From: Pelagibacterium sediminicola
GTDB taxonomy: Bacteria; Pseudomonadota; Alphaproteobacteria; Rhizobiales; Devosiaceae
Length of the DNA: 64,000 bases
Reading direction: 5' to 3'
NCBI RefSeq assembly: GCF_003390885.1
Contig: NZ_QMEL01000008.1
Coordinates: forward strand, 1 to 64,000
Below, piece by piece: positions 12,665 to 62,057 of the stretch (positions within the stretch are counted from its first letter, which is position 1; the number at the start of each line of letters is the position of its first letter). Both the position numbers and the translations under genes were made by a program. The notes under the pieces were generated by a model. The model was not told where the DNA came from. It did no database searches and saw only the letters and a list, made by a program, of their open reading frames with translations.

Positions 12665-12667
12665 GGA

Positions 12668-13699: not shown

Positions 13700-13763
13700 G
13701 TCGGTAACTCCTCTCCATCTCTGCTGCGAAGCGGCGGTCAATCAGCCTCCGAATCCATCACTA

Positions 13764-13780: not shown

Positions 13781-13838
13781 ATAATTCAACATGTCAACAT
13801 TTTTTGCTTTTCCCGAGCGATTGCGGCCTTCAAACATT

Positions 13839-13853
13839 TATGGTATTACCATA
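13839..13853. promoter_or_regulatory. Second palindromic operator upstream of the zinc dehydrogenase
   Basis: TATGGTATTACCATA is a perfect 15-bp palindrome sharing the TGGTATTACCA core with the other operators. Its centre lies 74 bases from that of the first site, about seven helical turns, which could allow looping or cooperative repression. Confidence 0.6.
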
Positions 13854-13925
13854 CTCTGTGACGCGCTAAAGGCTAGCTGGTCCATGACGGGCCCGAAACA
13901 CGCCACTTTCGTGCAGAGCCGGATA

Positions 13926-28055: not shown

Positions 28056-28263
28056 TTACCGAGGATGCTGGCCCCAGTGGCCCATCCAGCCGCCATCGAC
28101 GACCAGAACTTCGCCATTCACGTAATCCGAGGCGGCCGAAGACAGAAACACCACCGGCCCCTGCCTGCGCCAGGGCTTCGGCCATGCCGCGACCGATGCC
28201 ACGCTTGGCGCCGGTGACAATGGCGGTCTTGCCGGAAAGTTCGAAAGATTTCAGGACGGACAT
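28056..28263 (-). pseudogene. Hybrid kduD: 5' end of one copy joined out of frame to the 3' end of another
   Basis: The first 39 codons equal the intact kduD at 12664, up to ALAQAGA. At 28155 the sequence jumps to a different SDR tail, which in another frame reads [18 protein letters not shown] then VDGGWMG and stops at 28056-28058. The join is shifted by one base, and about 550 bp of SDR coding sequence is missing. The bases GGGGCCG fit both parents at the join, so a microhomology-mediated deletion between two kduD-like genes is the simplest explanation. The C-terminal part is not identical to the intact kduD, so it came from a second homologue. Confidence 0.85.
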
Positions 28264-28266
28264 GGA

Positions 28267-29298: not shown

Positions 29299-29362
29299 GT
29301 CGGTAACTCCTCTCCATCTCTGCTGCGAAGCGGCGGTCAATCAGCCTCCGAATCCATCACTA

Positions 29363-29379
29363 TTTTGGTATGACCAAAA
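29363..29379. promoter_or_regulatory. GntR-type operator, repeat copy 2 (first site)
   Basis: This is the duplicate of the palindrome TTTTGGTATGACCAAAA at 13764-13780, covering the -10 box of the copy 2 dehydrogenase promoter. Confidence 0.65.
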
Positions 29380-29437
29380 ATAATTCAACATGTCAACATT
29401 TTTTGCTTTTCCCGAGCGATTGCGGCCTTCAAACATT

Positions 29438-29452
29438 TATGGTATTACCATA
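29438..29452. promoter_or_regulatory. GntR-type operator, repeat copy 2 (second site), next to kdgK
   Basis: TATGGTATTACCATA lies 17 bp before the kdgK ATG, so in this copy the site could control both the dehydrogenase on the minus strand and kdgK on the plus strand. Confidence 0.6.
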
Positions 29453-29469
29453 CTCTGTGAGACAGGGAA

Positions 29470-40277: not shown

Positions 40278-42776
40278 CTATGTTCCGATGGATATGCCCG
40301 CAGCTATCAGGTTTTCGACCTCAGCGGCTATAGGCGTGATCAGGTCAACATCAACATCCGGCGTCTCAATGCCAACAACCAGTGCGTAGCGCGTCTTGCT
40401 CTCGGCTCGTCCGAGGGCTTTGCGCTCGCGCCACCAGCCTGAAATCGGATACACATAGAGGAGGTCCCGCGCCGCAAGCTCGACAGCGCTGCCCTCCCAG
40501 ATGTCCAAATGGATTGAGCCGGCAGACACCGATTTCGGCCCAAAGAACCAGCCGTCATTGTCTTCATTCACTGGCCTTGGATCCCCCTCAGCACGGTCAT
40601 CCTTATTGACCCGGCGCAGGAAATTCCTTTCCGTCTCCCTCGCTCGCTTCAAGTCGAAGCGAAGACCGAAAGACTGGTATCGTGCGGGATCGATCGCGCT
40701 TGCGAAGCTGGGATTCGGCTCAACGAAATACGACAATGTCGCCTTCAGCCTGACACATTCGTCACCGAGACCTTCAAGGACTTCCCGCGGCCAAGGCAGA
40801 CGATAGACATGGGCATCGCCAAACCGCACGTTGCCCCCGTCCATCCGGAAGGGCTGGATGTGCCGCTGGGCGACCAGGGCAAGGTCATCGCGTGCCGACG
40901 CTATCGCGCGACGCAGATTTGGCGCTCCATACCCGTACTTCCTCGCAAGGGCCTTTCTCTCGGTCTTGCCAGCAGCACCTGCAAATTCCGCGAGCATGTG
41001 CGGCGTCCATCGCGCGCTATGCACCATCAGTGCCCTAACCGTTTCTGGCCAAAAGTCAGGACGCTCAGCCATTACTCTCGCGGCCATCCTTCCCGCCTGG
41101 GCGGTCGCCGCGCTGGTAGCCCAGAAAGGTGCAACTGGCTCACGGCCTGCGGCTTTGGACGTCGTCAGCAGGGAAAGAGACGGCAGGCCGGACAGGGCCT
41201 CGGCCCCGGACCTGCTGAGCGCGCGGTTTCCAGCTTCGAACACGACCTCCGGCTTTATAGGGGATTGGCTCGACCGCCAGAGCGTAGTTGTCCGACTGTA
41301 AGGACTGCGGTCCCCCGGAGACGACCAGGCAGACCAGTCCTGGTAGCTGCGTTCGGCAATGTCGGATTTCAGTGTGGTGCCACCAACAGTAAGCACGTTC
41401 CAAGCCTGCGCCGGATCCTCGCCCGGGAAGGCATCGGCATCGGAGATTTCATCCGCTCTGGAATTGTCTCCGATATTTCCGAGCGCCTGCACAAACAGTC
41501 GGCGGATGTGGTCGGGCCCTTCCTCTATGGCATCAGCGCCGGAAGAAATCTGGTCGAGAGCCGCACTCCAGCCCGTCGGCTCCGCTCCCGAACGATTCTC
41601 GTTCGTAAGCGCCGCACAGAAGACCCGTGGACGTTCAGGTTCCGAGATTTCCGGCAATGAAGTCGCCGAGGTCGTGATCGCACCGTAGGAAAATGGATCA
41701 TTCGGCTCGAAACCGTCCGGCGGGAGAATTTTCACGGATTCCAGCCGGTGTGACAGGACAGGCCGTGACGCATCCCCCAGGGGCGCTGTAAGATCGCCGT
41801 GCAAAGCAAGTCCAGCCATTCCGGAGCCATGGCCGATGTCGCTGTGATCGTCGACGCCCCAGGCGGCAACCACAGCGAAGAGATCGCCGCGATCGAGAGC
41901 CGGCTCAATCAGGGCGTGTCCTCGATTGACTCCGGTATCGAGCAGGCAAATGGCCGGCACGTCCCTGCCCGGCCAGGTGATGCGCTCGGCGAGATCTTCG
42001 ACGAAATCATTCGCCATTCCAGAAAGTTCATCGGTGAACACCGCGGGCGTGTCGGTCGCCCGCCGGATCTCGGCAATGCCTCCGGTAGAAAACAGCAGCA
42101 GTTCGATCGCGGCGCGGCGACCATGGACAGGGAGAACGATCACCTCCGGAAAGCGGAGCCGCGTGTCGTCGCCTCCGACGGTCAGCCCCAGGCGTTGAGC
42201 CAGTTCGTCAACCCGCTCAACCCGATCTGTGAAGCACCAGAGCGCCCACCACATTTCTGCCTGCGGATCGTCTGGCAGTGCTGCCGGGTCGTCACGCCAG
42301 AAGGTCTGGAGGCGGGCGGTACGGATATGCTCGACCGGCTCGACGCGGGATTTCTTGGGGATCTTGTCCCCTTGCACCTCGGCGAACGCATAGTCACGAA
42401 AGATCGCGTCGAAGACATCGCGTGTATCGTCGGGCACGAAGAGCGCGATACGGCGGATACCGTTCGCGGTGACGGTTACAGCCCCCTGCCGTGTTCCTTC
42501 GCGCTTGCGTTCGAGAGTCGTCGGCCCCACCCCCAGCGCAAGCTCAACCTCAAGATAGATTCCATCGGGGGGCGACGTTCCGTCAGGCAGATCGAGCGCT
42601 TCTCTCCCCCGATCCGCAGACTGAAAAGCGGCATCAAGTTCTCCGACCACCCGGCGGCCGTGCTCTTCACGGATGCGCTGAAGTGATCTCTGGCGCGCAT
42701 TGCTGCCAGGAGACTTATAGTCGCGGACAACTCCCAGGCCGCTGAGATCAATATGACGGTGTTCGTATTCAGCCAA
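40278..42776 (-). CDS. ietS: Subtilisin-like serine protease, toxin-like half of an IetAS-type module
   Basis: The 832-residue S8 protein has Asp280 in AICLLDTGVNRGH, His316 in HSDIGHGSGMAGLALHG, and Ser555 in PFWATSAATAQAGRMAARVM, the subtilase triad. No signal peptide is present, so it acts in the cytoplasm. Pairs of an AAA ATPase and such a protease are known as ietAS: in Agrobacterium Ti plasmid work the protease was toxic and the ATPase protective, stabilising the plasmid, and the pair is also listed among antiphage systems. Here the start overlaps the end of the ATPase gene by eight bases. The protease target is unknown. Confidence 0.85.
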   Translation of the reverse strand: MAEYEHRHIDLSGLGVVRDYKSPGSNARQRSLQRIREEHGRRVVGELDAAFQSADRGREALDLPDGTSPPDGIYLEVELALGVGPTTLERKREGTRQGAVTVTANGIRRIALFVPDDTRDVFDAIFRDYAFAEVQGDKIPKKSRVEPVEHIRTARLQTFWRDDPAALPDDPQAEMWWALWCFTDRVERVDELAQRLGLTVGGDDTRLRFPEVIVLPVHGRRAAIELLLFSTGGIAEIRRATDTPAVFTDELSGMANDFVEDLAERITWPGRDVPAICLLDTGVNRGHALIEPALDRGDLFAVVAAWGVDDHSDIGHGSGMAGLALHGDLTAPLGDASRPVLSHRLESVKILPPDGFEPNDPFSYGAITTSATSLPEISEPERPRVFCAALTNENRSGAEPTGWSAALDQISSGADAIEEGPDHIRRLFVQALGNIGDNSRADEISDADAFPGEDPAQAWNVLTVGGTTLKSDIAERSYQDWSAWSSPGDRSPYSRTTTLWRSSQSPIKPEVVFEAGNRALSRSGAEALSGLPSLSLLTTSKAAGREPVAPFWATSAATAQAGRMAARVMAERPDFWPETVRALMVHSARWTPHMLAEFAGAAGKTERKALARKYGYGAPNLRRAIASARDDLALVAQRHIQPFRMDGGNVRFGDAHVYRLPWPREVLEGLGDECVRLKATLSYFVEPNPSFASAIDPARYQSFGLRFDLKRARETERNFLRRVNKDDRAEGDPRPVNEDNDGWFFGPKSVSAGSIHLDIWEGSAVELAARDLLYVYPISGWWRERKALGRAESKTRYALVVGIETPDVDVDLITPIAAEVENLIAAGISIGT

Positions 42777-43776
42777 GGCGTTCTTTTTCCTCGGCGAACA
42801 CCGTTTTCATGCTTTGCCTCTTGTTGAGCTGGCGCGTCAAATCGGCCGTAGAAACCTGCCCTCTTTCGGCCAAGATGGCTTCCTTCACCGCTTCTTCGGC
42901 AGCATGAACGATTTCCGCCTGGCTCAACCCGTCCGATGCGGCCTCGATGGCCTTCCAGGAGAGTTTGGGGTACTTCATCGGCGCCAGGTGCGCCTTGATG
43001 ATTGCGCGCACCTCCTCGGCAGTGGGCATTTCGAACCGCAACACCTCATCGAAGCGGCGGAGCAGAGCACGATCCAGAAGGGAAGGGTGATTGGTAGCGG
43101 CAACGAGAACGCTGTCGGTCGCAGATGGCTCCTCCATGAATTGAAGGAAGCTGTTCAGGACACGGCGCATCTCGGCTACATCGTTCGTCGCCAGACGGTT
43201 GCTGCCGACGGCATCGAACTCATCGAACAGATAGACACCCCTGCGCCGATGAGCCTCATCGAAGACAAGCCGCAGCTTGGCAGCCGTTTCCCCCATGAAG
43301 CGCGTGATCAGGCTTTCAAGGCGAATGACAAAGAGCGGCAAACGCAACTCGCCGGCCAATGCCTCCGCCGTCACGGTCTTGCCCGAACCCGGAGGCCCAG
43401 CGAAGAGCAGCCGGCGACTGGGTGTCTTGCCGTGTTCGCGGAGCCAGTCCCGGCGCCGCTGCTGAAGCACTACGGTGTCAAGATGCCCTTTGATATCGCT
43501 GCTGAGTATGACATCCGCGAGACGGATGCTTGGTTCCCGCAGGTCAAGCAGGCTGTCGAGATCGCCGCGCGGGCGCGAGAAGGAAATCGGAACCGAAGAT
43601 CGGGTACCACGCTGTGCACGCGCAGCATCCACCGCCGAGCGGATCTCTTCGGCGGTCGCCCGATGGCCCTGACGTGCTTCTCCGGCGGCAACCTGAAGCG
43701 CGATGGAGAAAAACTGCTCCTCATCGCCCTCCGCCTGGCTTCTCAGCATCGCCAGTATCTGCTTCGCATTTGACAC
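42769..43776 (-). CDS. ietA: AAA ATPase, antitoxin-like half of an IetAS-type module
   Basis: The 335-residue AAA+ protein has Walker A at residues 127-134 (LLFAGPPGSGKTVTAEAL), Walker B DEFD at 185-188 (VYLFDEFDAVG), sensor 1 VLVAATNH and an arginine-finger region RALLRRFDEVLRFEMP. The N-terminal 85 residues are helical and may bind the partner protease. It is the first gene of the pair; in the described module the ATPase restrains the protease. Upstream, 43777-43874 is a short gap to the broken DUF2274 gene, and should hold the promoter. Confidence 0.88.
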   Translation of the reverse strand: MSNAKQILAMLRSQAEGDEEQFFSIALQVAAGEARQGHRATAEEIRSAVDAARAQRGTRSSVPISFSRPRGDLDSLLDLREPSIRLADVILSSDIKGHLDTVVLQQRRRDWLREHGKTPSRRLLFAGPPGSGKTVTAEALAGELRLPLFVIRLESLITRFMGETAAKLRLVFDEAHRRRGVYLFDEFDAVGSNRLATNDVAEMRRVLNSFLQFMEEPSATDSVLVAATNHPSLLDRALLRRFDEVLRFEMPTAEEVRAIIKAHLAPMKYPKLSWKAIEAASDGLSQAEIVHAAEEAVKEAILAERGQVSTADLTRQLNKRQSMKTVFAEEKERLG

Positions 43777-43874: not shown

Positions 43875-44165
43875 TCAGTTGACGCAGGATCCTCCCCTGC
43901 CCTCTCCTTGGACACCGCACATCCAATCCCTCACAGCCGGCCTGCCCGCTTTCGCGCTGACAAAGCCGCGATCCGACGCCAGACACCGCGCCAGCTTCGG
44001 CACGACGAGCTTCTGCGGAGGGACCGCAACTCCTTGTCCGCCCGTGCCGGCGCGGCCCAGTAACTCTCCATAGAGGGCCAGCCCCCTGTGCAGGCCGACG
44101 GGCGGTCCGACGGACCGCTTCACCGGCGTATCGTCCGCGATCGGGCCCAGCTTCAGCTTCGTCAT
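43875..44165 (-). pseudogene. Diverged DUF2274 gene, second copy
   Basis: The frame from ATG 44165 begins TKLKLGPIADDTPVKRSVGP and continues LHRGLALYGELLGRAGTGGQ, recognisably the DUF2274 protein of trb modules but with several unusual replacements (VGPPVG for VELPAA) and a different C-terminal tail. It follows the trbI fragment by 9 bases in the usual order. It may still be translated, but with its partner genes lost I treat it as degenerate. Confidence 0.6.
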
Positions 44166-44173
44166 CATCTTTC

Positions 44174-44420
44174 TCATGCAGTCTCGAAGATCAAGTCGCG
44201 CCCCACGAGAATCCTGATCGGGAATCTCCACCGGATGGTCAGCGTGGGGGCGATCTGCAGCTGGCGCTGGACGATCTGCTGGCCGGCCTGGTTGCTGGTG
44301 TCCTGCGCCCCGTCGCGAATGGCGCGGATCAACCGGTTCTCCTCGTCGCCAGCGGCGAGTCCGGTGCCGGCCGCCATCAGCGTCGACAGCCCGGCGGCCT
44401 TCATCAGATCCCAGCCTGCC
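44174..44420 (-). pseudogene. trbI: trbI, 3' end only, second copy
   Basis: The frame reads WDLMKAAGLSTLMAAGTGLA, then NRLIRAIRDGAQDTSNQAGQ and QIVQRQLQIAPTLTIR to a stop at 44174-44176. It closely parallels the C-terminus of the intact TrbI at 31678-32790 but differs at many positions, so it comes from another conjugative element. Upstream of WDLMK, near 44415-44420, similarity ends abruptly and the CBASS flank begins. Confidence 0.85.
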
Positions 44421-44593: not shown

Positions 44594-46012
44594 TCAAATC
44601 AAAGCAGTGGGGACATACCTACGCTCGGAAATGACGAACTCATGCAACTGCGTCGGTGCCATCGCATTCCAGCGATGACCAAGCGCTACAGCGAGCGCTG
44701 CCGGCCCGGCGAAATAGAGTTGAATCCCTCGCGGGCGAAGGCGTGCAGCGGTGGAATCCACAATGCGCTTGATTGTCGAGACCGCAGCCTGCGCGCACTT
44801 GGCCGACGGAATGGGCTCTTCGAGGTAGAGCGCCAATGCCAACTGGTTAGGAATGCCAGCAGTCCGCTCAAGGTCAGCAGAAGGATCACGCAGGATACCT
44901 ACCGAAACGATGAGTTGATCACCATGCAAAGCCGTCGGCTCAGAAATCCGCCAAGGCTGCCGCATCTCAGGCGAAGGCCGGTCATCGGTCGCCCAGGCAC
45001 CGTCCCGCGTCGGGATATCCAACTCGAAGCCGATCGCTGCGCGGAACGAGCATCCCAGAGCCATGGCCGCCGTCAACCGGTAGGAACCGCTGAGGGCGAT
45101 GCGGGATACGGTCTGGCTGCCCAGCCATTGAGCCGTGCGATCCAGCGGCGCGAGAAAATCTTCAGCCCACTCCATTTGCGGCGGGAAGGTCCCGTCCCGC
45201 CCGGAAAATGCACTGGCGTCTATCTCGAGGCTCCGCTCGTTCGCTTCATTGCGATCTGACCGGATGTGCAGCGGGAAGCTCTGCGGCAGCGGAAGTGGAT
45301 GTCCTAAAGCGTCCTCGATCGTCTGGCGCAGGATGGCGCGTCCAAGCGGTGCGCCGATGGAACGCCGGGCCAGCGCGCTCAACGCCTCGAACGCTTCCCC
45401 GACCCGTCTAGATGATGCATCAAGGGAGGGATAGGCACGATCGAGTTCTATTCCGAACAGCGTGACGGCTGCGTCGCGATCCGGCAGATTGCGCTCGCAG
45501 ACTTCGACCGACCCGGCAACGAAGGCCCCAAGAGGATCGCCATAGGTTTCCGTGAGCTGTTTTCGTAGTTCGGCATCGCTTGCTGCCATCACATCAGCAA
45601 AGGGGGCGTAGAAAGGTCGGGCCTTTCGCACCCGATCAGGATCTCGGGCAAGCCAACGGACTTTCGGCGGCAACCGCGGCGTGACAAGGGTATGAACGCG
45701 CGCGGCATTCGGAAAGGCTGTCTCGAACTCGGAAAATGTCTGCAACACAGCGCGCACATCGGCAGGTGCCAGCACGCCGGCTTTCGCCTGAAATCGTTCG
45801 AGCAGCCTCTCTCTCTGTGCATGGGGCGCAAAGAACCGCGCTTCCAGGTCTTCCAACCCTTCAAAGATCATCTGTTCGAAAGCGGGATTGGCAAGCCATG
45901 CCGGCATCCGCGCAAGACCATCCCATAGCTGGTAGTCAAAGCCGTCCTGAGCGATCACCCCTCCCATGCCGCGGGCGTCCGTCAAGGCCGGCGCATTCTC
46001 ACTACTGCTCAA
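44594..46012 (-). CDS. cap4: CBASS effector Cap4: nuclease domain plus SAVED sensor
   Basis: I choose TTG 46012 as the start because GGAGG lies 7 bases before it and it overlaps the cap3 stop (TTGA); the product is 472 residues. The N-terminal part fits the DUF4297-type PD-(D/E)XK nuclease: GGVIAQDGFDYQLW, then IFEGLEDLEARF with Glu51/Asp55 and RFQAK with Gln75/Lys77. The C-terminal half is a SAVED domain: LALALYLEEPIPSAKCAQAA, LYFAGPAALAVALGHRWNAM, PTQLHEFVISERRYVPT. Cap4 proteins degrade DNA when the SAVED domain binds a cyclic oligonucleotide. It is the last gene of the minus-strand operon. Confidence 0.88.
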   Translation of the reverse strand: MSSSENAPALTDARGMGGVIAQDGFDYQLWDGLARMPAWLANPAFEQMIFEGLEDLEARFFAPHAQRERLLERFQAKAGVLAPADVRAVLQTFSEFETAFPNAARVHTLVTPRLPPKVRWLARDPDRVRKARPFYAPFADVMAASDAELRKQLTETYGDPLGAFVAGSVEVCERNLPDRDAAVTLFGIELDRAYPSLDASSRRVGEAFEALSALARRSIGAPLGRAILRQTIEDALGHPLPLPQSFPLHIRSDRNEANERSLEIDASAFSGRDGTFPPQMEWAEDFLAPLDRTAQWLGSQTVSRIALSGSYRLTAAMALGCSFRAAIGFELDIPTRDGAWATDDRPSPEMRQPWRISEPTALHGDQLIVSVGILRDPSADLERTAGIPNQLALALYLEEPIPSAKCAQAAVSTIKRIVDSTAARLRPRGIQLYFAGPAALAVALGHRWNAMAPTQLHEFVISERRYVPTALI

Positions 46013-46470
46013 GATTCTACCTCCAATGTCACCGGATGCTCGGCACCCTGCGGATCGAATACCCAAGCGCCGGCGGTCAGCATTGCAGCATCCAACCGCA
46101 CGATCATCAAAACAGCAAAGGAACCCGCGAACCGCGAATCGCGAACGATGCCCCGCATGGCTGCGACATCAGGGCCGCTGGGTTGCACAGCGAAGCTCGG
46201 ATGACTGTGCCATTCCCCAATATAATTGTAGCGCGTATAATGGCGCTCCGTCCGCTCGAAGAAACGAGCGGCATCCTTGGCGGCTTGCAGCAAATCGACG
46301 ACGAAGCGCGCGAAGGTTCCGGGACGAGACTGCACGGTCAGCTCCGTCACCCGAAAGATCGACGGCGCCAGTTGTTCACCGAACAATTGGCCTCCGGTTT
46401 CCTTGATGCCCGCTCGGCCGAGGGCCGCGACGAGCTTCTCGGTCTGATCAGCCGCCACCGCTATTTTCAT
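46009..46470 (-). CDS. cap3: CBASS deconjugating peptidase Cap3 (JAB/MPN fold)
   Basis: The 153-residue protein has the JAMM zinc-metalloprotease motif: Glu24 in IKETGGQLFGE, His88 and His90 in IGEWHSHPSF, and Ser98/Asp101 in QPSGPDVAAM. In type II CBASS, Cap3 removes the ubiquitin-like conjugation that Cap2 places on the CD-NTase. It overlaps the end of cap2 by 23 bases and the start of cap4 by four, so the operon is tightly coupled. It appears complete. Confidence 0.9.
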   Translation of the reverse strand: MKIAVAADQTEKLVAALGRAGIKETGGQLFGEQLAPSIFRVTELTVQSRPGTFARFVVDLLQAAKDAARFFERTERHYTRYNYIGEWHSHPSFAVQPSGPDVAAMRGIVRDSRFAGSFAVLMIVRLDAAMLTAGAWVFDPQGAEHPVTLEVES

Positions 46471-48142
46471 CCGCCCCCTCCTTCAACAATTCGAGCGCGA
46501 ACGCGATCGCCTCCGGTACATCTGCGGCCTGAGCCCTCTCCCCTCGCTCACCGACGTTCAGGCGGATCGTGTGCCCATGCCCGTCAAACAACCAGTTCTT
46601 CTGATAGCCCAATAGCAGCCAGGCAGCTTCAGCGGGAGGCGGATGACCATCGACAATATCCAGAATCGTGCGGGCAGCGTGGCCGGCGGTCATCGTGACG
46701 GCCGCATCATCAGCAATGACAGGCGACCCGTCTGTGGTCAGCATCTCGTAGCGGCGCGGCCCTGCCTCCGGTGGCTTGATGCCTTGCGTATCACACCAGG
46801 CGAGGAAGGTCGCACGACCTTCAACGAAGGGAGGATCACGCGGCGACACACAGGTTGCTATCAGCGCTCCGATACCGCCTTCGAACACTTCTACCGAAAC
46901 GAAAACCCGACCATTCGCCTCGGCAACGGCAGCGAGGAACAGGGCTGTCGCCGGATCGCCGGTCGCATCGACGATAACATGCGCCGCCGCCAAAGCCTCC
47001 ACCTGCCAGGCATGTGTCCTGGACGACCGCTGCCAGTTCAGATTGGCATCAACAACTTGGATGTCCGCACCAGGAACGATGTGGAGAAGATGCCGCTTCA
47101 ACCCGTGAACCTTGCGAAACCCGACGTCGCGCCAGTCGAGCGCATGGCGCTCCAGATTGCCAGGCAACATCACATCGCCGTCAACGAGGGTGAGATGGTG
47201 AACACCCGAGCGCAAAAGCGTTTCCGCAATCTTGGAACCCACCGAACCGGCTCCTACGATCGTCACGCGTTTCGCCATCGCCTCCTCGGCGCGTGCAGAG
47301 CGCGCACCAATTTCGTCCGGGAGGACGAACACGCGCCGCCGAAAAGTTCCCCCCTCAGTAGTAAGATGAAATATCTCGACCTGCCCCTCAGAAGGAAACA
47401 TGACGACAGCTGCGACCGACACTTCGACGATTGCGGCCGTCAACGGATCAAATCCAGCGGCCTGGACGAGTCCGGCCCGGTCCAGCGCACCCGGCGGTGG
47501 CGGTGGATTGCCGGAAACATAGACCGGCAAAGCTGAACGCCAGTTCTCGATACTGGCGTCCGGGGGGCGTTGCATCGCCCGTCGATCCTCTTCATCGTGA
47601 ATCATGATCGGCCATACATCGTCATGGGCCAACCAGCGCAAGGCGTTGAGACCGGCGGCGATTCCACTCTTAATCCGCGCCAGACAGCCCGCTCTGATCA
47701 GAACTGGAAACGCGCCCCAGTCGTAGGCCTGGAGTTCTCCAATATCATGGGCTGAGGGCGCCCGGTCCTCACCCCCGCCAAGAGGATTTTCGATGACAAG
47801 CAGATTGTAGGCGCTGCGAAGGACATCCGCTCCGGTTGCTCTGCCATCCCAGTTGTCAGGCCGAAGCTCCAGGCAGAGCGTCCCGGTGCCATATTGATGT
47901 GAACTCCACCGAACCTCACCCTGTGGTTCGACCCAGGCGGGGACTTCGGGATACTGATCAGGATAGATCAACCGGATCGGGTACCGATGCCCGTGCGCAA
48001 TCAGAAGCCCCTCCGCGCAGAACATATTTTTATGGAAGCGCCAGCACGCCAGCTCAAACCAGTTCTCGTTGTCGGCAACGGCCTCGACCGCGGATTTTTC
48101 CGCTGCCAGTCTGGCAGATTCGACGGCCCACCAGAACTTCAA
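46448..48142 (-). CDS. cap2: CBASS E1-E2 fusion protein Cap2
   Basis: The 564-residue protein has an N-terminal E2-like domain (YPIRLIYPDQYPEVPAWVEP, then GTGTLCLELRPDNW with candidate catalytic Cys90) and a ThiF/E1 domain (VTIVGAGSVGSKIAETLL at 294-311, LVDGDVMLPGNLERHAL with Asp321). Later cysteines at about 431 and 450 are candidates for the E1 catalytic residue. Cap2 attaches the CD-NTase C-terminus to target proteins and so primes it. Its ATG overlaps the CD-NTase stop (ATGA). Confidence 0.92.
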   Translation of the reverse strand: MKFWWAVESARLAAEKSAVEAVADNENWFELACWRFHKNMFCAEGLLIAHGHRYPIRLIYPDQYPEVPAWVEPQGEVRWSSHQYGTGTLCLELRPDNWDGRATGADVLRSAYNLLVIENPLGGGEDRAPSAHDIGELQAYDWGAFPVLIRAGCLARIKSGIAAGLNALRWLAHDDVWPIMIHDEEDRRAMQRPPDASIENWRSALPVYVSGNPPPPPGALDRAGLVQAAGFDPLTAAIVEVSVAAVVMFPSEGQVEIFHLTTEGGTFRRRVFVLPDEIGARSARAEEAMAKRVTIVGAGSVGSKIAETLLRSGVHHLTLVDGDVMLPGNLERHALDWRDVGFRKVHGLKRHLLHIVPGADIQVVDANLNWQRSSRTHAWQVEALAAAHVIVDATGDPATALFLAAVAEANGRVFVSVEVFEGGIGALIATCVSPRDPPFVEGRATFLAWCDTQGIKPPEAGPRRYEMLTTDGSPVIADDAAVTMTAGHAARTILDIVDGHPPPAEAAWLLLGYQKNWLFDGHGHTIRLNVGERGERAQAADVPEAIAFALELLKEGADENSGGG

Positions 48143-49194
48143 GCGAAACCACGAGGCTTATTCGCCGGAGCGGCCATGGCGTTAGGGAAGGTATAGCCCG
48201 CAGCGACAGGCGCCGCTGCCGCGAAGCCTCCGTAGGTCGCTGCCTTCGCCACGTTCGCGGTGAGTTTGAACCGATCACCGAACACCCGGCGCCACTGGCG
48301 GGTCGCCTCATCCATATCCACGGCGTCTTGGGCTCGACGGGCTATGTCGGCATAGACGCGAACCTTCTCGATGAAATCCTTCCATTGTGCGACCGACACT
48401 TTGCCAAGGATATCGTTCGACGGGTCCGCAGGGTCAGCGAGGAACGGCTTCTGATTATTCGCTGCGAGCCAGGCGTATTCATTGTAGATATTCGCGAGAA
48501 GCTGCGCGAACCCTTCGCCGTAATGCGTTTCTGTCGCTGGCGCGTGCCGCGAAACAAGAACTTCCAGGACAAAACCCTTCGGGCGACGCCCGCTCGGGTT
48601 CATCCTGCGCCACCACTTGAACAGTTTGACGAGCGGTTTGAACCGGCCGCCGAACCTTTGATTCTGCTCTGCGCTCCAACTGGTATGAACCGGCGGATTC
48701 GTGAACTTCCACGTGCCCGTATCACGATCAGGGATCATGTATCCGTTCCAAGCCGGCACGACCGGGACGATATCCATCTCGGCCTGCCACGTCTCCACAC
48801 GTACCGAGCGCTTGTTGATCCGCTCGACCACGTAACCATTGCCACCATCTTCAAGCGCGCGGCACACTTCTTTCAGCACATCGTCAGGATGATCACTGGT
48901 CGAGAAGTTCGTGACGACGATGATGTCAACATCCGGGCGCTCCAACTCGCCAGCTGAAGTGCGCGGCCGGATGGACGTACTGCGAGCATAACTCCCTGAC
49001 AGAAAGCTGCTTACGTATCTATCCTTGAAGCTCTGCTGGGTCCGCAGGTGTTTACGGATGCCGTTGTGGCCACCGGAAGCCTTGGTCTTCGTCGTTTGGC
49101 TGGGCTCGATATCTTCGAGCAATTCGGTAAATCGAGCCTGTGGAACCGGCATGGCATCCTCATATGTTCTTCGTTCGTTTAAAATCAGCGCCAT
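48139..49194 (-). CDS. cdnX: CBASS CD-NTase (cGAS/DncV-like nucleotidyltransferase)
   Basis: With ATG 49194 the protein has 351 residues. The nucleotidyltransferase core is clear: FLSGSYARSTSIRP with Gly67-Ser68, RPDVDIIVV with Asp88 and Asp90, and EMDIVPVVPAW with the third acid Asp141. It makes a cyclic oligonucleotide on phage infection, which activates Cap4. The C-terminus ends in AAPANKPRGFA, and a small terminal residue fits a Cap2 conjugation tail. A later ATG at 49152 with AGGA before it is an alternative start. The clade letter cannot be set by eye. Confidence 0.88.
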   Translation of the reverse strand: MALILNERRTYEDAMPVPQARFTELLEDIEPSQTTKTKASGGHNGIRKHLRTQQSFKDRYVSSFLSGSYARSTSIRPRTSAGELERPDVDIIVVTNFSTSDHPDDVLKEVCRALEDGGNGYVVERINKRSVRVETWQAEMDIVPVVPAWNGYMIPDRDTGTWKFTNPPVHTSWSAEQNQRFGGRFKPLVKLFKWWRRMNPSGRRPKGFVLEVLVSRHAPATETHYGEGFAQLLANIYNEYAWLAANNQKPFLADPADPSNDILGKVSVAQWKDFIEKVRVYADIARRAQDAVDMDEATRQWRRVFGDRFKLTANVAKAATYGGFAAAAPVAAGYTFPNAMAAPANKPRGFA

Positions 49195-49248
49195 CGACGC
49201 CACCCCCATCCAGTAGCGCACCTGTCGGCAACCGATCTTCCTTTGCCA

Positions 49249-49297
49249 TTGACTCGCTGGCAAGATAGATATACGAACTATACGCACGCCACGTCAA
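49249..49297. promoter_or_regulatory. Overlapping divergent promoters between CBASS and the WYL-led operon
   Basis: On the minus strand TTGACG (49292-49297), 18 bases and TATATC (49268-49273) make a plausible promoter for cdnX. On the plus strand TTGACT (49249-49254) with TATACG (49270-49275), spacing 15, or a nearby hexamer could drive the WYL gene. The two -10 boxes overlap. TATACG also recurs at 49280-49285 (ACTATACGC), and GCCA/TGGC with ATCTT/AAGAT arms span 49235-49266, possible regulator half-sites. Confidence 0.4.
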
Positions 49298-49333
49298 TAT
49301 CAGAATAGTTTCTAACCCCATGAAGGATCACGA

Positions 49334-50197
49334 GTGCGCTGGGGCATCGAGCAAAGGCTAGAGTTCATCGAGTTCCGTCTGTTCTGGGAGGGATCGATCA
49401 ATCGCGCCAACATCACAGAGTTCTTCGGCGTGTCGGTGCCGCAGGCGTCCAAGGATTTGACGCTCTATCAGGAGCGCGCGCCAGGAAACATGGAGTATGA
49501 CCCCCGCGCCAAGCGCTATGTCGCCGCCGAAAAGTTCGTTCTGCGCTTCCTCGAACCGGACCCTTACATCTATCTCTCGCAGCTTCGTTCGGTCGCCGAA
49601 GGCGCCGTGCCCGCGAGCGATTCCTGGATCGCGGCGCTTCCCAGCGCCGATGTCGCGCTGACCCCCAGGCGGGACATCGACATCGCGGTGCTGCGCAAGA
49701 TTCTCGACGCCAGCCGCGAGGGCGCCTCGATCGACGTCTTCTACCAGTCGATGAACAAGGTGCGGCCGGACCCCATTTGGCGGCGGATCACGCCGCACGC
49801 CTTCGGCTATGACGGGTTCCGCTGGCACGCGCGGGCCTATTGCCACCTTGAGCACAAGTTCAAGGACTTCCTCCTGCCGCGCATCCTCGAAGTCGGTGGG
49901 AAGGGCGAACCTGGGGAAGCCGGCGAGGGGGACTGGCTCTGGCACAACTATTTCGATGTCGTCATCGGCCCGCATCCGGGGCTTGCGACGAGCCAGAAGA
50001 AGGTCGTCGCCAAGGATTATGGGCTGGATCAGGGAAATGGTGTGCTCTCGGTCCGTTACGCGATGCTCTTCTATGTTTTGAAGCGTCTGGGTTTGCTTGG
50101 TGACGCCGCGAAACAGAGCGCCCATACGCAACATATCGTAACGATAAACCGCAAAGAAACTGAGGCTGCGCTTGAGAAGGCGGAGTTTCAGCTATGA
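49334..50197 (+). CDS. capW: WYL-domain transcriptional regulator, CapW/BrxR-like
   Basis: The GTG at 49334 has GAAGGA upstream. The 287-residue protein has an N-terminal winged helix (RLFWEGSINRANITEFFGVS, VPQASKDLTLYQERAPGNME), a WYL domain (GASIDVFYQSMNKVRPDP, ITPHAFGYDGFRWHARAYCH) and a C-terminal WCX-like extension. Proteins of this architecture repress CBASS (CapW) and BREX (BrxR) operons and are thought to respond to infection signals. It is divergent from the CBASS operon and 21 bp ahead of the helicase gene, so it may control both. The gene symbol reflects the CBASS neighbour and is tentative. Confidence 0.8.
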   Translation: MRWGIEQRLEFIEFRLFWEGSINRANITEFFGVSVPQASKDLTLYQERAPGNMEYDPRAKRYVAAEKFVLRFLEPDPYIYLSQLRSVAEGAVPASDSWIAALPSADVALTPRRDIDIAVLRKILDASREGASIDVFYQSMNKVRPDPIWRRITPHAFGYDGFRWHARAYCHLEHKFKDFLLPRILEVGGKGEPGEAGEGDWLWHNYFDVVIGPHPGLATSQKKVVAKDYGLDQGNGVLSVRYAMLFYVLKRLGLLGDAAKQSAHTQHIVTINRKETEAALEKAEFQL

Positions 50198-50218
50198 GAG
50201 AATCGGGGGCGCCGGCTA

Positions 50219-53727
<3,509 letters not shown>

Positions 53728-53731
<4 letters not shown>

Positions 53732-56532
53732 CCCAACCCTACAAGAAGAAACTGATCGAAGTCGCCATCCCGCTTGAGGCCATCAACGCCGCCTCGGCGC
53801 GGGAGAAGTCGATCCGGCATGGGCATCCCTCCACCCTGCATCTGTGGTGGGCGCGACGGCCGCTGGCGGCGTGCCGGGCGGTATTGTTTGCGCAACTGGT
53901 GGATGATCCGTCTAGCCTGCCCGACCAGTTCCCCACGCCCGAGGCGCAGGAGGCCGAACGCAAGCGGCTGTTCGCCATCATCGAAGACCTGGTGAAATGG
54001 GAGAATTCGACCAACGAAGAGGTGCTGGAGCGCGCGCGGGCGGAAATCCGACGCTCTTGCGGGGACGAGCTGCCGCCGGTCTATGACCCGTTCTCGGGCG
54101 GCGGGTCGATCCCGCTTGAGGCGCAGCGGCTGGGCCTGCCCGCCTATGGGTCCGACCTGAACCCGGTGGCGGTGATGATCGGCAAGGCGATGATCGAGAT
54201 CCCGCCCAAGTTCAAGGACATGCCCCCCATCCACCCCGGCATCAAGGAACGGTCGTTCTATCGCAACGCCGAGGGGCTGGCCGAGGATGTGAAATATTAC
54301 GGCGAATGGATGCGCGAGAAGGCGTGGGAGCGTATCGGGCATCTTTACCCGCAGGTGGACCTGCCAAAGGAGTATGGAGGAGGAAAGGCGACGGTGATCG
54401 CCTGGATCTGGGCGCGGACGGTGCCGAGCCCAGACCCGGCATTCGCGGATGTGCAGGTGCCGATTGCATCGAGCTTTCTGCTGAGTTCCAAGGCCGGACG
54501 CGAGGCTTGGGTCGAGCCCGTCGTGGACCGTCACGCCAAGACCATCAGCTATCGCATCCGGCAGGGCGGAACGAAGGCCGAGCTTGCGGCGGCGAAAGAG
54601 GGCACCAAGGCCGGTCGTGGAGCCAACTTCCGTTGCATCATCTCGGATACGGCAATCACGCCGGACTATGTGAAAGCCAAGGGCAAGGCCGGCCAAATGG
54701 GGCAGACCCTGATTGCCATCGTGGCCGAGGGCAACCGCAGCCGCGCCTATGTCGAACCGAAGGCCGATCATGCCGAACTGGCGCTTTCCGCCAAGCCGGA
54801 ATGGTCGCCGGAAACGCCCCTGCCGAACGATCCGCGCAATTTCTGGACGGTGGATTACGGACTTGATACGTTCGGAAAACTGTTCACCGACCGCCAGCTT
54901 GTCGCGCTGAACACGTTCAGCGATCTGGTGCATGAGGCGCGGGCGCAGGTTCAGGCCGACGCCCGCGCCGCCGGGATGAACCCCGACGAAACCCCGCTCC
55001 GCGACACCGGCAAAGGCGCTAAAGCCTATGCCGAGGCGGTAAGCGTGTATTTGGCGTTTGCCCTCAATCGGTCTGCTGATCGTGGATCAAGCATTTGCAC
55101 ATGGGATTCCTCACCCAAGATGGAGGCGCTGCGGAATACCTTCGGTCGGCAAGCAATTCCAATGACGTGGGATTTTGCCGAGGGAAACCCATTCTCGAAG
55201 GCAAGCGGCAATTTCCTCAACAATGTTGATTGGGTCCATAAATCTGTCCAGCTTCTCGTGCCAGCGGCTGCGGGATTTGAGGCGCAGCACGACGCACAGA
55301 CCGTCCAGTATCCTGCAAACACGGTGATTTCCTCTGACCCGCCATATTACGACAATATCGGCTACGCAGATCTGTCGGACTTCTTTTTCTGCTGGATGAA
55401 ACCAGCCATCAGACCTGTATTCGGTGACATCTTTGGTGTTCTGGCTACGCCAAAATCGGAAGAACTCGTCGCCACACCCTATCGCCACGGCGGGAAAGAG
55501 GCCGCCGAGACCTTCTTTCTTGATGGTATGGGCAAAGCGATTGCCAACATGGCCCAACAGTCTTCCGATCAGTTCCCGGCGTCCATCTATTACGCTTTCA
55601 AGCAAAGCGAGGTTGCGCAGGAAGGTATCAGTTCCACCGGCTGGGCCACCTTCCTGCAAGCCGTGGTCGAAGCCGGTTATGCCGTCGTCGGCACCTGGCC
55701 GATGCGCACCGAAATGGCGAACCGCATGATCGCCTCAGGTACCAACGCCCTCGCCAACTCGGTTGTCCTCGTCTGCCGCAAGAAGGACGCCTCGGCCGAG
55801 GTCATCACCCGCGCCGAGTTCATCCGCGCACTGAAACGCGAACTGCCCCCCGCCATCGCCGAGCTTCAGGCCGCCAACATCGCCCCTGCCGACATGCCCC
55901 AATCGGCCATCGGCCCCGGCATGGGCGTGTTCTCGCGCTACAAGGCGGTGCTGGAATCCGACGATAGCCCGATGAGCGTCAAGACCGCGCTGCAACTGAT
56001 CAACCGGGAACTCGACGAATATCTCGGCGGCATCGAGGGCGAGTTCGATTCCGAGACCCGCTTTGCCATCACCTGGTTCCAGCAGAACGGGAACGGCAAG
56101 GGCGATTACGGCGTGGCCGACAACCTCGCCCGTGCGCGCGGCATCTCGGTCGAAAGCGTGAAACATGCCGGGATCGTGGAAAGTGCCGCCGGCAAGGTCC
56201 GCATCCTGACCCGCGACGAGCTTGCCGAGGATTGGGAGCCGGAAAGCGATGGCCACTTGACGGTGTGGGAATGCCTCCAGCACCTCGTCAAGGCGCATGA
56301 GAGGGACGGCATCTCGCACGACACCGCCGTGTTGCTGAAAAAGATCGGCAGCCAGGCCGAGGCAGTGAAAGACCTAGCCTATTGCCTTTACGACATCAGC
56401 GCAAACAAGCGGAAGGATGCGAAGGAAGCGACGGCCTACAACGCCCTGATCGCCGACTGGGCCGAGTTGACCAAGGCGGCTGCGGGCATTCACGACACAA
56501 GCGGGGATCGCCAGATCCGCATGGGATTCTGA
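53728..56532 (+). CDS. DUF1156-family DNA methyltransferase
   Basis: The 934-residue protein opens with the DUF1156 signature (KKKLIEVAIPLEAINAASAR, then GHPSTLHLWWARRPLAACRA). The SAM-binding motif is DPFSGGGSIPLEAQRLGLPA at 120-139 and the catalytic motif is SDPPYYDNIGYADLSDFF near residue 537, so it is an amino-methyltransferase with motifs in permuted-type spacing. Such proteins presumably mark self DNA or modify a specific site in a defence system. It overlaps the helicase stop and is followed 13 bp later by the DUF499 gene. The target sequence cannot be read from the protein. Confidence 0.88.
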
Positions 56533-56545
56533 GGGGAGCCGGAAC

Positions 56546-59845
<3,300 letters not shown>

Positions 59846-59936
59846 TAGGAGCTGGTTGCTTATCTTCTCAAGGACAAGACTGGCAGCGCAATTTTTGGTG
59901 ACCGAAGTAGCAGCTTGATACAGAAAGCGGGGCGGC

Positions 59937-62057
59937 GTGGCTGACGGGCAGATCGAAACGGCGATAGCGGAACTGACGCGGCTGCGGGACGATGACAACG
60001 CACATCGCGAGGTTCTCGACCGCGCAAGCTATACGATGCTGCATCGGCCTGCATTGGGTGGACGCCTGATCGCCATTCTTTGCGCCACGGAGGAGAACGC
60101 CCCGGAGCTGGAGCCACTCACCGAATTGCTGGCATCGGCACTGGATGCCGCGCGTATCGCCAGGGAGAACCGAAAGAAGCGAGGTGATACCTTTCTTGAG
60201 GCAGTGACGGATGCGGTCGAACTGGCTTCTGGCCAGGGGCGCCTGAGCCCCTTCCACCGCCTGCTTCTTGCAAGCGCATGGACGAGGAACGGACTGCCCG
60301 CACCCGCATCTCTGGAGGTTTCTTCCGCCGATATGATGCTCGCAGCGCCCGGTCCTGCCCCGCAGGATCGTGTCGCGGCGGAGGCGGCGCTGGAAGATCT
60401 GTTCCGCAGCCTGATCGAGCAGACCGAAGGCGATGCGCTCGCGCTGCATGCCGCGCTGACCGAGACGTTCCCGGCAATGCCGTCGGCAATGCGTCAGCAC
60501 GTCATTGCATGGTCGGTTGGACGATCGGAGCCGATCCACGCGAAGCTGACATGTTTCTGGCTGCTCGATCCGTCAGCGCAGATCCGCGCTGCGGCGGCAC
60601 ACGCCTTGGTCGAACGCGCCGCCGCAGGCACGCTCTCGCAGGAGATAGCGAGCAAGATGGTGATCCTGCGCAGCTGGATGCCTCAGGACGAGGCTCGCGC
60701 CTCGGTGGACAGGGCATTGAAACTCGCCATGCGGTCGGGTCTGGCGACCGGCGCATCAGCCAAGCCGTGGACCATCCATTCGGTCATGGCCACACTGCCC
60801 GATGGCGGCGGCGCGCAAAGCCTCATGATCGCGCTACAATCGGGCGGAAGCCGCAAGACCGCGATGCTGCTCTTCAAGCAGGGCCACGGGGTCAAGGACG
60901 CCTATACCGTGCCCTGCACGTCGGCGAGCGAACAGAAGGCGCTGCTCAGCCGCATCAGCCAGGAGACCGGCGCGGTCAAGGTGCCCCTCTCTTGGCTCGA
61001 AGGCAGTATCGGCATGGCCCTGGCCGATGGCCTGGCAGGAGGGCTGCCCCCGGCTCCGGGGCTCATCGAGGTGGCGGAACTCTGCGGCCTCGACAAGCTG
61101 CGACCTGAAGCCGTCACGACTGAAGCCATGATCTCTGCCTTGCCCGCGTCGGAACGTATACGCGACCTCTCGGCTCAAGCGCGAGGCAGGCTGATCAATG
61201 CCAGCGAGGGCTGGTGGGATCGTCATGAGATCGTCCAGAGCTGGTTCGAGGAAAGCGATCATGCGCATGAAGTGCTCGAGGGCCGCCACAGCCCGCGCGC
61301 GCTGGACTCGGCGCTGTGGCGATGGCTTGACACCCGACGCGACTTCTGGGCGCGACTTGTCGCGCGGGCGGCCGATGTGCTGGCGGCGGCCGACCACCCG
61401 GACGCCAACAGCTTCACGGCCACGGCGATGGCGCTCCTCGAAGGACGCGATCTGAAGAAGATCCCGGTCATGGCCGATGTCCACGACCAGACAATCGAGG
61501 CATGGGTATTCGACGACCCGGACGTGGATCCGGACGCCACGCTTGAGGAATGGGTGGAAGAGGCGGAAGCAGAGGCGCCAAAGCCGGAGCGGAAGGGCGA
61601 ACTGGCACGCCTCGTGAAGGGCTCGGCGATTACGGCAGATTGGATCGACGGGTTCCTGATGTCGGTCACAATCGCGCCGAAGGTGATCGCGCCCAGCAGG
61701 TGGCTACCCGAGATCCTCGGCAGCGCCATCGGAAACCTGACGCCGGACAGTATCCAGCGCTTCGCCGATCTGATCCTGATGCGCGCAAACGCCTGCGTGG
61801 ACCAGGCGGACGAGCCTACGGAATTTTCGGGCGCGATGTCGGGACGCAGCCAGATGGCCATGCGGGACTGGGCGGCCGGATTCAGCCATGCCCGCGAGCA
61901 TTTTCGATCATCTTGGCCCGCGAAGTCCACGGCCCCGGGCGATCGGGCGATGATGCAGTGTGTTGCCGATGCGATGGCCACGGGCTTCGGCGCAGCCGAA
62001 TTGAAGGGCCTTGGCCAGTGGATCACTGCTCGGCATGATCGAAACAAGGAATCCTGA
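59937..62057 (+). CDS. Hypothetical 706-residue helical-repeat protein with a YecA/UPF0149-like C-terminal segment
   Basis: From GTG 59937 the protein is mostly helical with HEAT-like character (LDPSAQIRAAAAHALVERAA near 208-227, then repeated A/L-rich helices). Near residues 566-590 WIDGFLMSVTIAPKVIAPSR followed by WLPEILG resembles the WLDG-F-x-A-x-x-x-x-P core of YecA/UPF0149 proteins. No catalytic motif is visible. It is separated from the DUF499 gene by 91 bp without an obvious terminator and is probably cotranscribed. A scaffold, adaptor or sensor role is likely for such a protein, but is not shown. Confidence 0.6.
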   Translation: MADGQIETAIAELTRLRDDDNAHREVLDRASYTMLHRPALGGRLIAILCATEENAPELEPLTELLASALDAARIARENRKKRGDTFLEAVTDAVELASGQGRLSPFHRLLLASAWTRNGLPAPASLEVSSADMMLAAPGPAPQDRVAAEAALEDLFRSLIEQTEGDALALHAALTETFPAMPSAMRQHVIAWSVGRSEPIHAKLTCFWLLDPSAQIRAAAAHALVERAAAGTLSQEIASKMVILRSWMPQDEARASVDRALKLAMRSGLATGASAKPWTIHSVMATLPDGGGAQSLMIALQSGGSRKTAMLLFKQGHGVKDAYTVPCTSASEQKALLSRISQETGAVKVPLSWLEGSIGMALADGLAGGLPPAPGLIEVAELCGLDKLRPEAVTTEAMISALPASERIRDLSAQARGRLINASEGWWDRHEIVQSWFEESDHAHEVLEGRHSPRALDSALWRWLDTRRDFWARLVARAADVLAAADHPDANSFTATAMALLEGRDLKKIPVMADVHDQTIEAWVFDDPDVDPDATLEEWVEEAEAEAPKPERKGELARLVKGSAITADWIDGFLMSVTIAPKVIAPSRWLPEILGSAIGNLTPDSIQRFADLILMRANACVDQADEPTEFSGAMSGRSQMAMRDWAAGFSHAREHFRSSWPAKSTAPGDRAMMQCVADAMATGFGAAELKGLGQWITARHDRNKES

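What the first reader, a model, noticed from the sequence alone, without database searches (positions are those of the whole stretch)
49334..62057. WYL-led operon: SNF2-DUF3883 helicase, DUF1156 methylase, HEPN-DUF499 ATPase and a YecA-like repeat protein
Five plus-strand genes are arranged with very short gaps (21 bp, a 4-base overlap, 13 bp, 91 bp). Each of the first four carries a family known from defence islands, but the set lacks the defining genes of BREX (PglZ/BrxC), DISARM (DrmA/DrmB) and restriction-modification (a specificity subunit). The combination of a methylase, a helicase-nuclease-like fusion and a HEPN ATPase suggests a self/non-self system ending in RNA cleavage. This is the best candidate in the window for a system that is undescribed or poorly described.
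Basis: partly seen in the sequence, partly recalled or inferred. Interest (0 to 1): 0.85.

Follow-up and report, generated by a model that had tools for sequence, protein, structure and literature searches.

The report
Known Hma defence system with regulator
These genes are a copy of an already named bacterial anti-phage system (Hma), led by a known kind of regulator gene; what looks new is a natural record of its DNA-recognition part being exchanged in two separate pieces and of the same core standing beside different neighbouring defence systems.

Summary
The five genes lie exactly where described. The middle three are not undescribed: they match PADLOC's HmaA, HmaB and HmaC over nearly their whole profiles. 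They form the Hma system (PMC8565338, 2021), called Type-1 BREX-related in 2026 (PMC12839542), which already includes the HEPN-fused form. The WYL gene is a CapW/BrxR-type regulator and directly precedes hmaA in 10 of 12 near loci, window included. The UPF0149 gene is a passenger at the edge of a conjugative-element insertion site: 8 of 12 loci carrying it have no adjacent Hma. Two additions I did not see in the texts read. (1) HmaB holds two cassettes between its cofactor and catalytic motifs that were exchanged independently: the window shares cassette A with Aquamicrobium (98%) and cassette B with P. kondratievae (99%). This predicts two-part, swappable target recognition. (2) The WYL-Hma core stands divergently beside four kinds of cassette: CBASS-Cap4 (here), E1/E2-JAB-patatin, UvrD/PD-(D/E)XK with or without Zac, and Qat. 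Likely mechanism: HmaB marks self DNA, HmaC and HmaA attack unmarked DNA, HEPN is a backup RNase, WYL represses the operon.

The parts
49334..50197 (+). WYL-domain transcription factor of the CapW/BrxR type; predicted repressor of the hma operon
   Evidence: Pfam WYL 1.5e-6; best PDB match S. maltophilia CapW 7tb6, 7.2e-58 over residues 1-277; BrxR 7t8k 3.8e-33; directly before hmaA in 10 of 12 near loci, window included
49276..49310 (.). Candidate WYL operator: AACTATAC-N19-GAATAGTT (one mismatch), 23 bp before the WYL start; candidate -35 TTGACT at 49249-49254 (read by eye)
   Evidence: The window copy alone is not significant (23 of 60 shuffles as good). A like-placed site is perfect in L060 and L063 (0 of 60 each) and strong in L064 (1 of 60). 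The promoter scan found none.
50219..53731 (+). HmaA: SNF2 helicase with C-terminal NOV_C/DUF3883 PD-(D/E)XK-type nuclease domain
   Evidence: PADLOC HmaA 1593.6 bits, residues 4-1168 of 1170; NOV_C 5.6e-21; IEVKGR, GAGKT and DEAH in 10 of 10 proteins, window included; the D before P is N in one of the 10
53728..56532 (+). HmaB: DUF1156 amino-methyltransferase (predicted N6-adenine) with two exchangeable cassettes
   Evidence: PADLOC HmaB 1258.5 bits, residues 6-923 of 934; DPFSGGG at residue 120 in 10 of 10, DPPYYDN at 537 in 9 of 10 and DPPYYSN in 1; cassettes
54568..54957 (+). HmaB cassette A (residues 281-410): differs from P. kondratievae, shared with Aquamicrobium
   Evidence: Against L005: dS 0.61, dN 0.285, with dS 0.02 or less after residue 410; residues 255-420 66% identical while 1-240 and 650-934 are 100%. 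Against L006: 98% identical, dS 0.01.
55048..55587 (+). HmaB cassette B (residues 441-620, protein divergence mostly 441-530): differs from Aquamicrobium, shared with P. kondratievae
   Evidence: Against L006: pS 0.82-0.96 (saturated), dN 0.489 (441-530) and 0.093 (531-620), against a gene background pS of about 0.25. Against L005: 99% identical over 435-560.
56546..59845 (+). HmaC: DUF499 AAA+ ATPase with N-terminal Swt1-like HEPN domain
   Evidence: PADLOC HmaC 949.7 bits over residues 167-1097; HEPN_Swt1 1.4e-24 over 12-122; GGGKTH and LIDEW in 11 of 11 proteins; RNKLSH in 9 and RNKLAH in 2 of 11 at residues 93-98
59937..62057 (+). 706-aa protein with C-terminal UPF0149 domain: passenger or edge gene, not part of Hma
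   Evidence: Pfam UPF0149 8.3e-9; no adjacent Hma in 8 of 12 loci; homology to the Hma-less locus L007 begins in the 200-bp step that holds its start
44594..49287 (-). Divergent neighbour, a separate system: CBASS with CD-NTase, E1-E2 (Cap2), JAB (Cap3) and SAVED endonuclease (Cap4-like)
   Evidence: The CD-NTase start in the ORF list (GTG, 49287) is probably too early: the candidate WYL promoter lies inside it and the P. kondratievae copy changes frame near residue 28.

Best explanation
A WYL-repressed Hma (Type-1 BREX-related) anti-phage system. Steps: (1) the CapW/BrxR-like WYL protein binds an inverted repeat just upstream of its own gene and keeps WYL-hmaABC low until a signal releases it (inferred from homology and the site). 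(2) HmaB methylates host DNA at a target read by two exchangeable cassettes that lie between its SAM-binding motif and its DPPY motif (the exchange is shown in sequence; the role in target reading is inferred). (3) HmaC, a BrxC-like AAA+ ATPase, and HmaA, a SNF2 helicase with a PD-(D/E)XK-type nuclease domain, assemble on unmarked DNA and cut or block it (inferred from the families and published proposals). (4) The HEPN domain of HmaC, with its RxxxxH motif intact, acts as a backup RNase (inferred, as proposed in print). The UPF0149 gene is not needed (inferred from its distribution).
For: PADLOC HmaA 1593.6, HmaB 1258.5, HmaC 949.7 bits. Published definitions: PMC8565338 (passages), PMC12839542 (passages and the whole of section 29). 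Catalytic motifs kept in the 10 or 11 proteins compared. WYL directly upstream of hmaA in 10 of 12 near loci. Inverted repeat in L060, L063, L064. Cassette exchange in HmaB. CapW binds palindromes over the -10 site and represses (PMC9122588, passages).
Against: No experiment here. L056 and L101 lack a like WYL gene before hmaA, and in the wider sample it adjoins hmaA in only 5 of 30 loci including the window. The window's own inverted repeat is imperfect and not significant alone (23 of 60 shuffles); L055, L062 and L065 show no repeat that stands out, and L054 has a different one. The promoter scan found nothing. HmaC has no PDB sequence match and its model failed (pLDDT 40). The compared proteins are one clade, so motif conservation is weak evidence. 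One of 10 HmaA proteins has N in place of the nuclease D. Shallower patches of lower identity also occur outside HmaB (HmaA ends, HmaC 950-1050).
Confidence: 0.85

Rival explanations
1. The WYL gene is the CapW of the divergent CBASS operon, not the regulator of Hma; the order WYL-hmaA is a by-product of island packing.
For: Best PDB match is CapW. capW is reported to lie upstream of the CBASS genes on the opposite strand (PMC9122588, passage), which is the layout here.
Against: The WYL gene stays with hmaA (short gap, same strand) when the divergent partner is E1/E2-JAB-patatin (L054), UvrD/PD-(D/E)XK (L055, L062, L063, L065) or Qat (L060, L061, L064/L066). The repeat lies 20-24 bp before the WYL start in window, L060, L063 and L064. 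Control of both operons is not excluded.
Confidence: 0.15
2. All five genes form one new system in which the UPF0149 protein is a sensor or scaffold.
For: Same strand, 91-bp gap; the gene follows hmaC in the window and in L005, L006, L010 and L011.
Against: 8 of 12 loci with the gene have no adjacent Hma; L016 has only a weak DUF499-like match (25% identity, 68 bits) 5.8 kb away. Eight Hma loci with 4 kb or more held beyond hmaC lack it: L017, L054, L055, L056, L064, L070, L101, L102. Homology to the Hma-less L007 starts at the gene. More distant relatives on plasmids sit beside relaxase, toxin-antitoxin, sugar or other genes.
Confidence: 0.05
3. The HmaB patches are neutral gene-conversion tracts with no effect on target choice.
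For: Recombination is evident: synonymous divergence jumps with the tract.
Against: Protein change is concentrated inside each tract. Against L005: residues 150-280 dN 0.003 at dS 0.30, but 281-410 dN 0.285. Against L006: 441-530 dN 0.489, 531-620 dN 0.093, synonymous sites saturated in both. The same two regions are the least alike in most pairs of the 10 proteins. PMC12839542 places a target recognition insert in the methyltransferase core.
Confidence: 0.2

Closest known systems
Hma system (PADLOC; PMC8565338)
   Same: Helicase, methylase and ATPase together; all three profiles matched over nearly their whole length
   Different: A WYL gene leads the operon; HmaC has an extra N-terminal HEPN domain outside the PADLOC HmaC profile (which aligns from residue 167)
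Type-1 BREX-related (BR) system (PMC12839542)
   Same: HEPN-DUF499 ATPase, DUF1156 methyltransferase, SNF2 helicase with C-terminal nuclease domain; 1370 of 2446 taxa there have the HEPN fusion (section 29)
   Different: I saw no WYL leader (the word occurs only twice, both in its reference list), no exchange of two methyltransferase cassettes and no recurrent divergent partners in the parts read; supplements not seen
HEPN-DUF499 with SNF2-DUF3883 restriction-type operon (Ava_2192, PMC3710099)
   Same: Same fusions described in 2013 (passages)
   Different: Family survey; the words WYL and UPF0149 do not occur in its main text
CapW of CBASS and BrxR of BREX (PMC9122588, PMC9122601)
   Same: Sequence similarity over most of the protein; palindrome near the promoter
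   Different: Here it heads an Hma operon; 'Hma' does not occur in the main text of PMC9122601

Membership tests
Hma (PADLOC) | HmaA, HmaB and HmaC adjacent | tested here: met
   for the hits; for adjacency
Hma (PADLOC) | Protection against phage | not testable with these tools
   PMC12839542 cites a 2024 experimental study of HmaA (Liu et al.), which is not held; I saw only the citation
Type-1 BR system | DUF499 ATPase, often with N-terminal HEPN | tested here: met
   RxxxxH in 11 of 11 proteins
Type-1 BR system | Helicase with C-terminal PD-(D/E)XK nuclease | tested here: met
   NOV_C 5.6e-21; IEVKGR in 10 of 10. Fold not tested.
Type-1 BR system | C-terminal RRM-like domain in the ATPase | tested here: inconclusive
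   HmaC model too poor (pLDDT 40)
Type-1 BR system | N-terminal Tudor domain in the helicase | not tested
   No structure job spent on HmaA; Pfam lists none
NCBIfam antiphage-associated DUF499 and DUF1156 equivalogs | Scores above curated cut-offs (1200 and 1000 bits) | tested here: not met
   167.6 and 132.1 bits
BREX | PglZ and BrxC (DUF6079) present | tested here: not met
   No such match among the five operon proteins (the PADLOC list for HmaA shows 25 of 53 families)
DISARM | DrmA and DrmB with DrmC; DrmD above cut-off | tested here: not met
   DrmD equivalog 391.2 bits against a cut-off of 610. HmaA matches DrmA and DrmD profiles only as a related helicase, far below HmaA. No DrmB or DrmC match shown (list for HmaA capped).
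CapW/BrxR-type WYL regulator | Sequence similarity over most of the protein | tested here: met
CapW/BrxR-type WYL regulator | Palindrome over the promoter | tested here: inconclusive
   Clear in L060 and L063, near-perfect in L064, imperfect and not significant in the window; not seen in L055, L062, L065
CapW/BrxR-type WYL regulator | Represses and is released by a ligand | not testable with these tools
   Needs a bench assay

The most novel reading that the evidence does not exclude
WYL-Hma is a mobile defence core with plug points. HmaB has two independently exchangeable target-reading halves, so one helicase-ATPase chassis can be given new specificities, as in Type I restriction. The WYL gene and the divergent promoter region beside it serve as a socket into which CBASS, Qat, UvrD/PD-(D/E)XK-Zac and other cassettes are plugged and jointly controlled; further modules are nested between hmaA and hmaB.
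Probability: 0.3. Interest if true: 0.65.

Novelty: new member of a known kind. Interest (0 to 1): 0.38.

Why it matters
The system is known, so the finding should not be counted as a new one. Its value is as a natural experiment. P. kondratievae, the window and Aquamicrobium carry HmaB proteins that pair the cassettes as A'-B, A-B and A-B'. Reading the methylation motifs of these strains would show which part of HmaB reads which part of the target; the texts I read propose a target recognition insert but report no such test. The WYL-Hma core beside four kinds of partner makes shared control of separate defence systems testable.

Tried and rejected
Undescribed four-gene system: rejected by PADLOC HmaA/B/C hits. 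BREX and DISARM membership: rejected on missing genes and sub-cut-off scores. UPF0149 gene as a component: rejected. Structure of the UPF0149 protein: usable only for the N-terminal part (blocks mostly above 70 to about residue 260; 61.9 overall); the PDB fold search gave no hit at E 0.001 or less, with helical-repeat proteins among the top rows, so no function follows. Structure of HmaC: failed. Viral contigs: no relative of the UPF0149 protein, two Hma loci. Promoter scan: none found. PADLOC 2021 calls HmaB an m5C methylase; its database label says DNA-adenine methylase and PMC12839542 says N6; that DPPY marks amino-methyltransferases is recalled knowledge.

Rows set aside or weak: the homologue counts include the window; L006 and L011 are near-identical, as are L060 and L061, and the window and L059, so the loci are not all independent. 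L102 lacks hmaA and the start of hmaB; the script returned only 7 residues of its HmaB, so L102 is used for HmaC alone. In one search, L092, L094 and L095 hold less than 0.7 kb upstream of hmaA, so a WYL gene could be missed. L083-L086, L096-L098 and L100 score only 514-612 bits with HmaA and may not be true HmaA; of these L084 has the WYL hit. One search used 60 shuffles per locus., 50 and 87 tables omit tblastn rows of low bit score (60, 50 and 50).
Full report
Observation. All five genes are present at the stated places with the stated gaps. Pfam gives WYL; SNF2 and Helicase_C plus NOV_C; DUF1156; HEPN_Swt1 plus DUF499; and UPF0149.

What the core is. Against PADLOC-DB the second, third and fourth proteins match HmaA (1593.6 bits, residues 4-1168 of 1170), HmaB (1258.5 bits, 6-923 of 934) and HmaC (949.7 bits, 167-1097 of 1099, nearly the whole 941-position profile). 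Hma was named in 2021 as a helicase-methylase-ATPase system with 1,638 instances (PMC8565338, passages). A 2026 study calls it Type-1 BREX-related and reports 2446 taxa, 1370 of them with an N-terminal HEPN domain on the DUF499 ATPase and 1921 with a helicase-nuclease fusion (PMC12839542, passages and section 29). The HEPN-DUF499 fusion in an operon with SNF2-DUF3883 was in print in 2013 (PMC3710099, passages).

Catalytic state. Helicase motifs GAGKT and DEAH and the nuclease motif IEVKGR are in 10 of 10 HmaA proteins; the D before it is N in one. In HmaB, DPFSGGG is in 10 of 10 and DPPYYDN in 9 of 10 (DPPYYSN in one). In HmaC, GGGKTH and LIDEW are in 11 of 11 and the HEPN motif R-N-K-L-S/A-H in 11 of 11 (window included in each count). 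These proteins are 58-99% identical to the window's, one clade, so the conservation is only suggestive. HmaC has no PDB sequence relative and its model failed.

The WYL gene. Its PDB matches are, in order, a CapW, an entry named only WYL domain-containing protein, another CapW, BrxR, and a further WYL protein. It directly precedes hmaA on the same strand in the window, L054, L055, L059, L060, L061, L062, L063 (same genome as L017), L064 and L065: 10 of 12 near loci with hmaA and sequence before it. The two others are L056, where an annotated WYL gene lies 0.8 kb upstream with another gene between and no tblastn match, and L101, with 3.2 kb held upstream and no match. In a wider sample of HmaA loci (16 of 385 class genomes, 14 of 398 phylum genomes at E 1e-150) a WYL profile hit adjoined hmaA in 5 of 30 loci, window included. 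So it is a trait of this clade and some others, not of Hma in general.

Operator. A pair of arms AACTATAC/GTATAGTT lies 20-24 bp before the WYL start: without mismatch in L060 and L063 (0 of 60 shuffles as good). In L064 and the window the right arm reads GAATAGTT; L064 is still strong through longer arms (1 of 60), the window is not (23 of 60). L054 has a different strong repeat (0 of 60); L055, L062 and L065 have none that stands out (41, 28 and 42 of 60). CapW is reported to bind palindromes over the -10 site and repress (PMC9122588, passages). The promoter scan of the window found no match.

Changing partners. The cassette divergent from the WYL gene differs among the 10 loci: CBASS with a Cap4-like endonuclease in the window and P. 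kondratievae L059; an E1/E2-JAB protein with patatin genes in L054, whose first gene did not match a CBASS cyclase; a UvrD helicase and a PD-(D/E)XK protein (AddAB-like, a recalled comparison) in L055, L062, L063 and L065, followed by ZacABC in L055 and L063 only; QatABCD in L060, L061 and L064 (its upstream stretch is L066). Modules are also nested between hmaA and hmaB: a TmtA-like ATPase in L054, L055, L062 and L064, a HEC-07-like protein in L017. The sample is small, from related Alphaproteobacteria, and several loci are near copies.

Exchanged cassettes in HmaB. The island from 40.2 kb to about 60.2 kb is 99-100% identical to P. kondratievae chromosome 2 in most 200-bp steps; the deepest drop, to 69%, is at 54,600 in hmaB. 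There residues 255-420 are 66% identical, while residues 1-240 and 650-934 are 100% and 435-560 are 99%. Against Aquamicrobium, residues 255-420 are 98% and 435-560 are 59%, with 1-240 and 650-934 at 98%. Synonymous sites show recombination. Against P. kondratievae dS is 0.02 in residues 1-150, 0.30 in 150-280, 0.61 in 281-410 and 0.02 or less after. Against Aquamicrobium the background is about 0.25-0.30 (pS 0.25 also in hmaA and hmaC), but dS is 0.03 and 0.01 in 150-280 and 281-410, and 441-620 is saturated. The window's HmaB thus joins an Aquamicrobium-like cassette A to a P. kondratievae-like cassette B, which needs at least two events. Protein change is concentrated inside each tract (dN 0.285 in 281-410 against 0.003 in 150-280; 0.489 in 441-530 against 0.093 in 531-620). 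Cassette A and the variable part of B lie between DPFSGGG (120) and DPPY (537). PMC12839542 describes a target recognition insert in the methyltransferase core. I infer two exchangeable target-reading halves. A search for DUF1156 with methyltransferase returned 3 papers; I read parts of one and no supplements, and saw no report of such exchange.

The UPF0149 gene. Twelve loci carry a close relative. Hma is adjacent in 4 (L005, L006, L010, L011). An exonuclease gene and a WYL gene are adjacent in 4 (L007, L008, L012, L014), with an MmeI-like enzyme seen in L007 and L008. Mza-type genes lie upstream in L013 and L015; a transposase and a PDC-S06 gene in L009; L016 has no identified system nearby and a weak DUF499-like match 5.8 kb off. 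A LysR gene follows in 8 of the 9 loci with sequence to the right (not L016), and trb genes further right in 7 of these 8 (L009 ends too soon). Right of the window lie VirB8, TrbL, TrbE-type, T2SSE-type, TraG and relaxase/DUF3363 genes, so the island appears to be cargo of a conjugative element. Homology to the Hma-less locus L007 starts in the 200-bp step that holds the gene's start. It is best read as an edge gene. Among 136 genomes of the window's family only the window's own holds a close copy; two others gave weak partial matches. The predicted fold is a helical repeat in the N-terminal part.

Verdict. A well preserved, probably working member of a known system. The added value is the two cassette exchanges and the WYL-Hma core with changing partners. 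On checking, the WYL count was mended from 10 of 11 to 10 of 12 (L101 added); the odds did not need to change.

Noticed in passing
window 40278-43776 (minus): A pair resembling IetAS: an IetS-like protein (PADLOC 2.6e-26, far below the NCBIfam cut-off) and an AAA ATPase; 99% identical in P. kondratievae beside the same CBASS.
   Followed up: partly
window 12556-13861 and 28155-29460: A perfect 1306-bp direct repeat carrying an alcohol-dehydrogenase-like gene flanks a 14-kb stretch with TRAP transporter genes, transhydrogenase pntAB and a fructose bisphosphatase gene.
   Followed up: partly
L054, L055, L062, L064 and L017, between hmaA and hmaB: The hmaA-hmaB junction is an insertion place for other modules: a TmtA-like ATPase in four loci and a HEC-07-like protein in one.
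   Followed up: partly
L056 hmaB (Rhodobacter sp. CZR27): The first 240 residues of its HmaB are 95-98% identical to the window and Aquamicrobium copies while residues 255-420 are 25% and 650-934 about 70%, another sign of recombination.
   Followed up: no
window 44000-44413: Short stretch 79% identical to TrbI/DUF2274 genes of a Paracoccus pantotrophus plasmid and 83% to an unannotated stretch of a P. denitrificans plasmid: possibly a remnant of conjugation genes on the far side of the CBASS operon.
   Followed up: no
plasmids of Sinorhizobium, Rhizobium, Mesorhizobium, Microvirga (for example H17-H45): Many plasmid proteins, mostly annotated as hypothetical, match only about residues 70-522 of the UPF0149 protein; whether they lack the C-terminal domain was not checked.
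   Followed up: no
L056 18151-27475: A protein with partial DruH similarity and a large gene annotated as DEAD/DEAH helicase follow hmaC directly on the same strand, perhaps a Druantia-like pair behind Hma.
   Followed up: no
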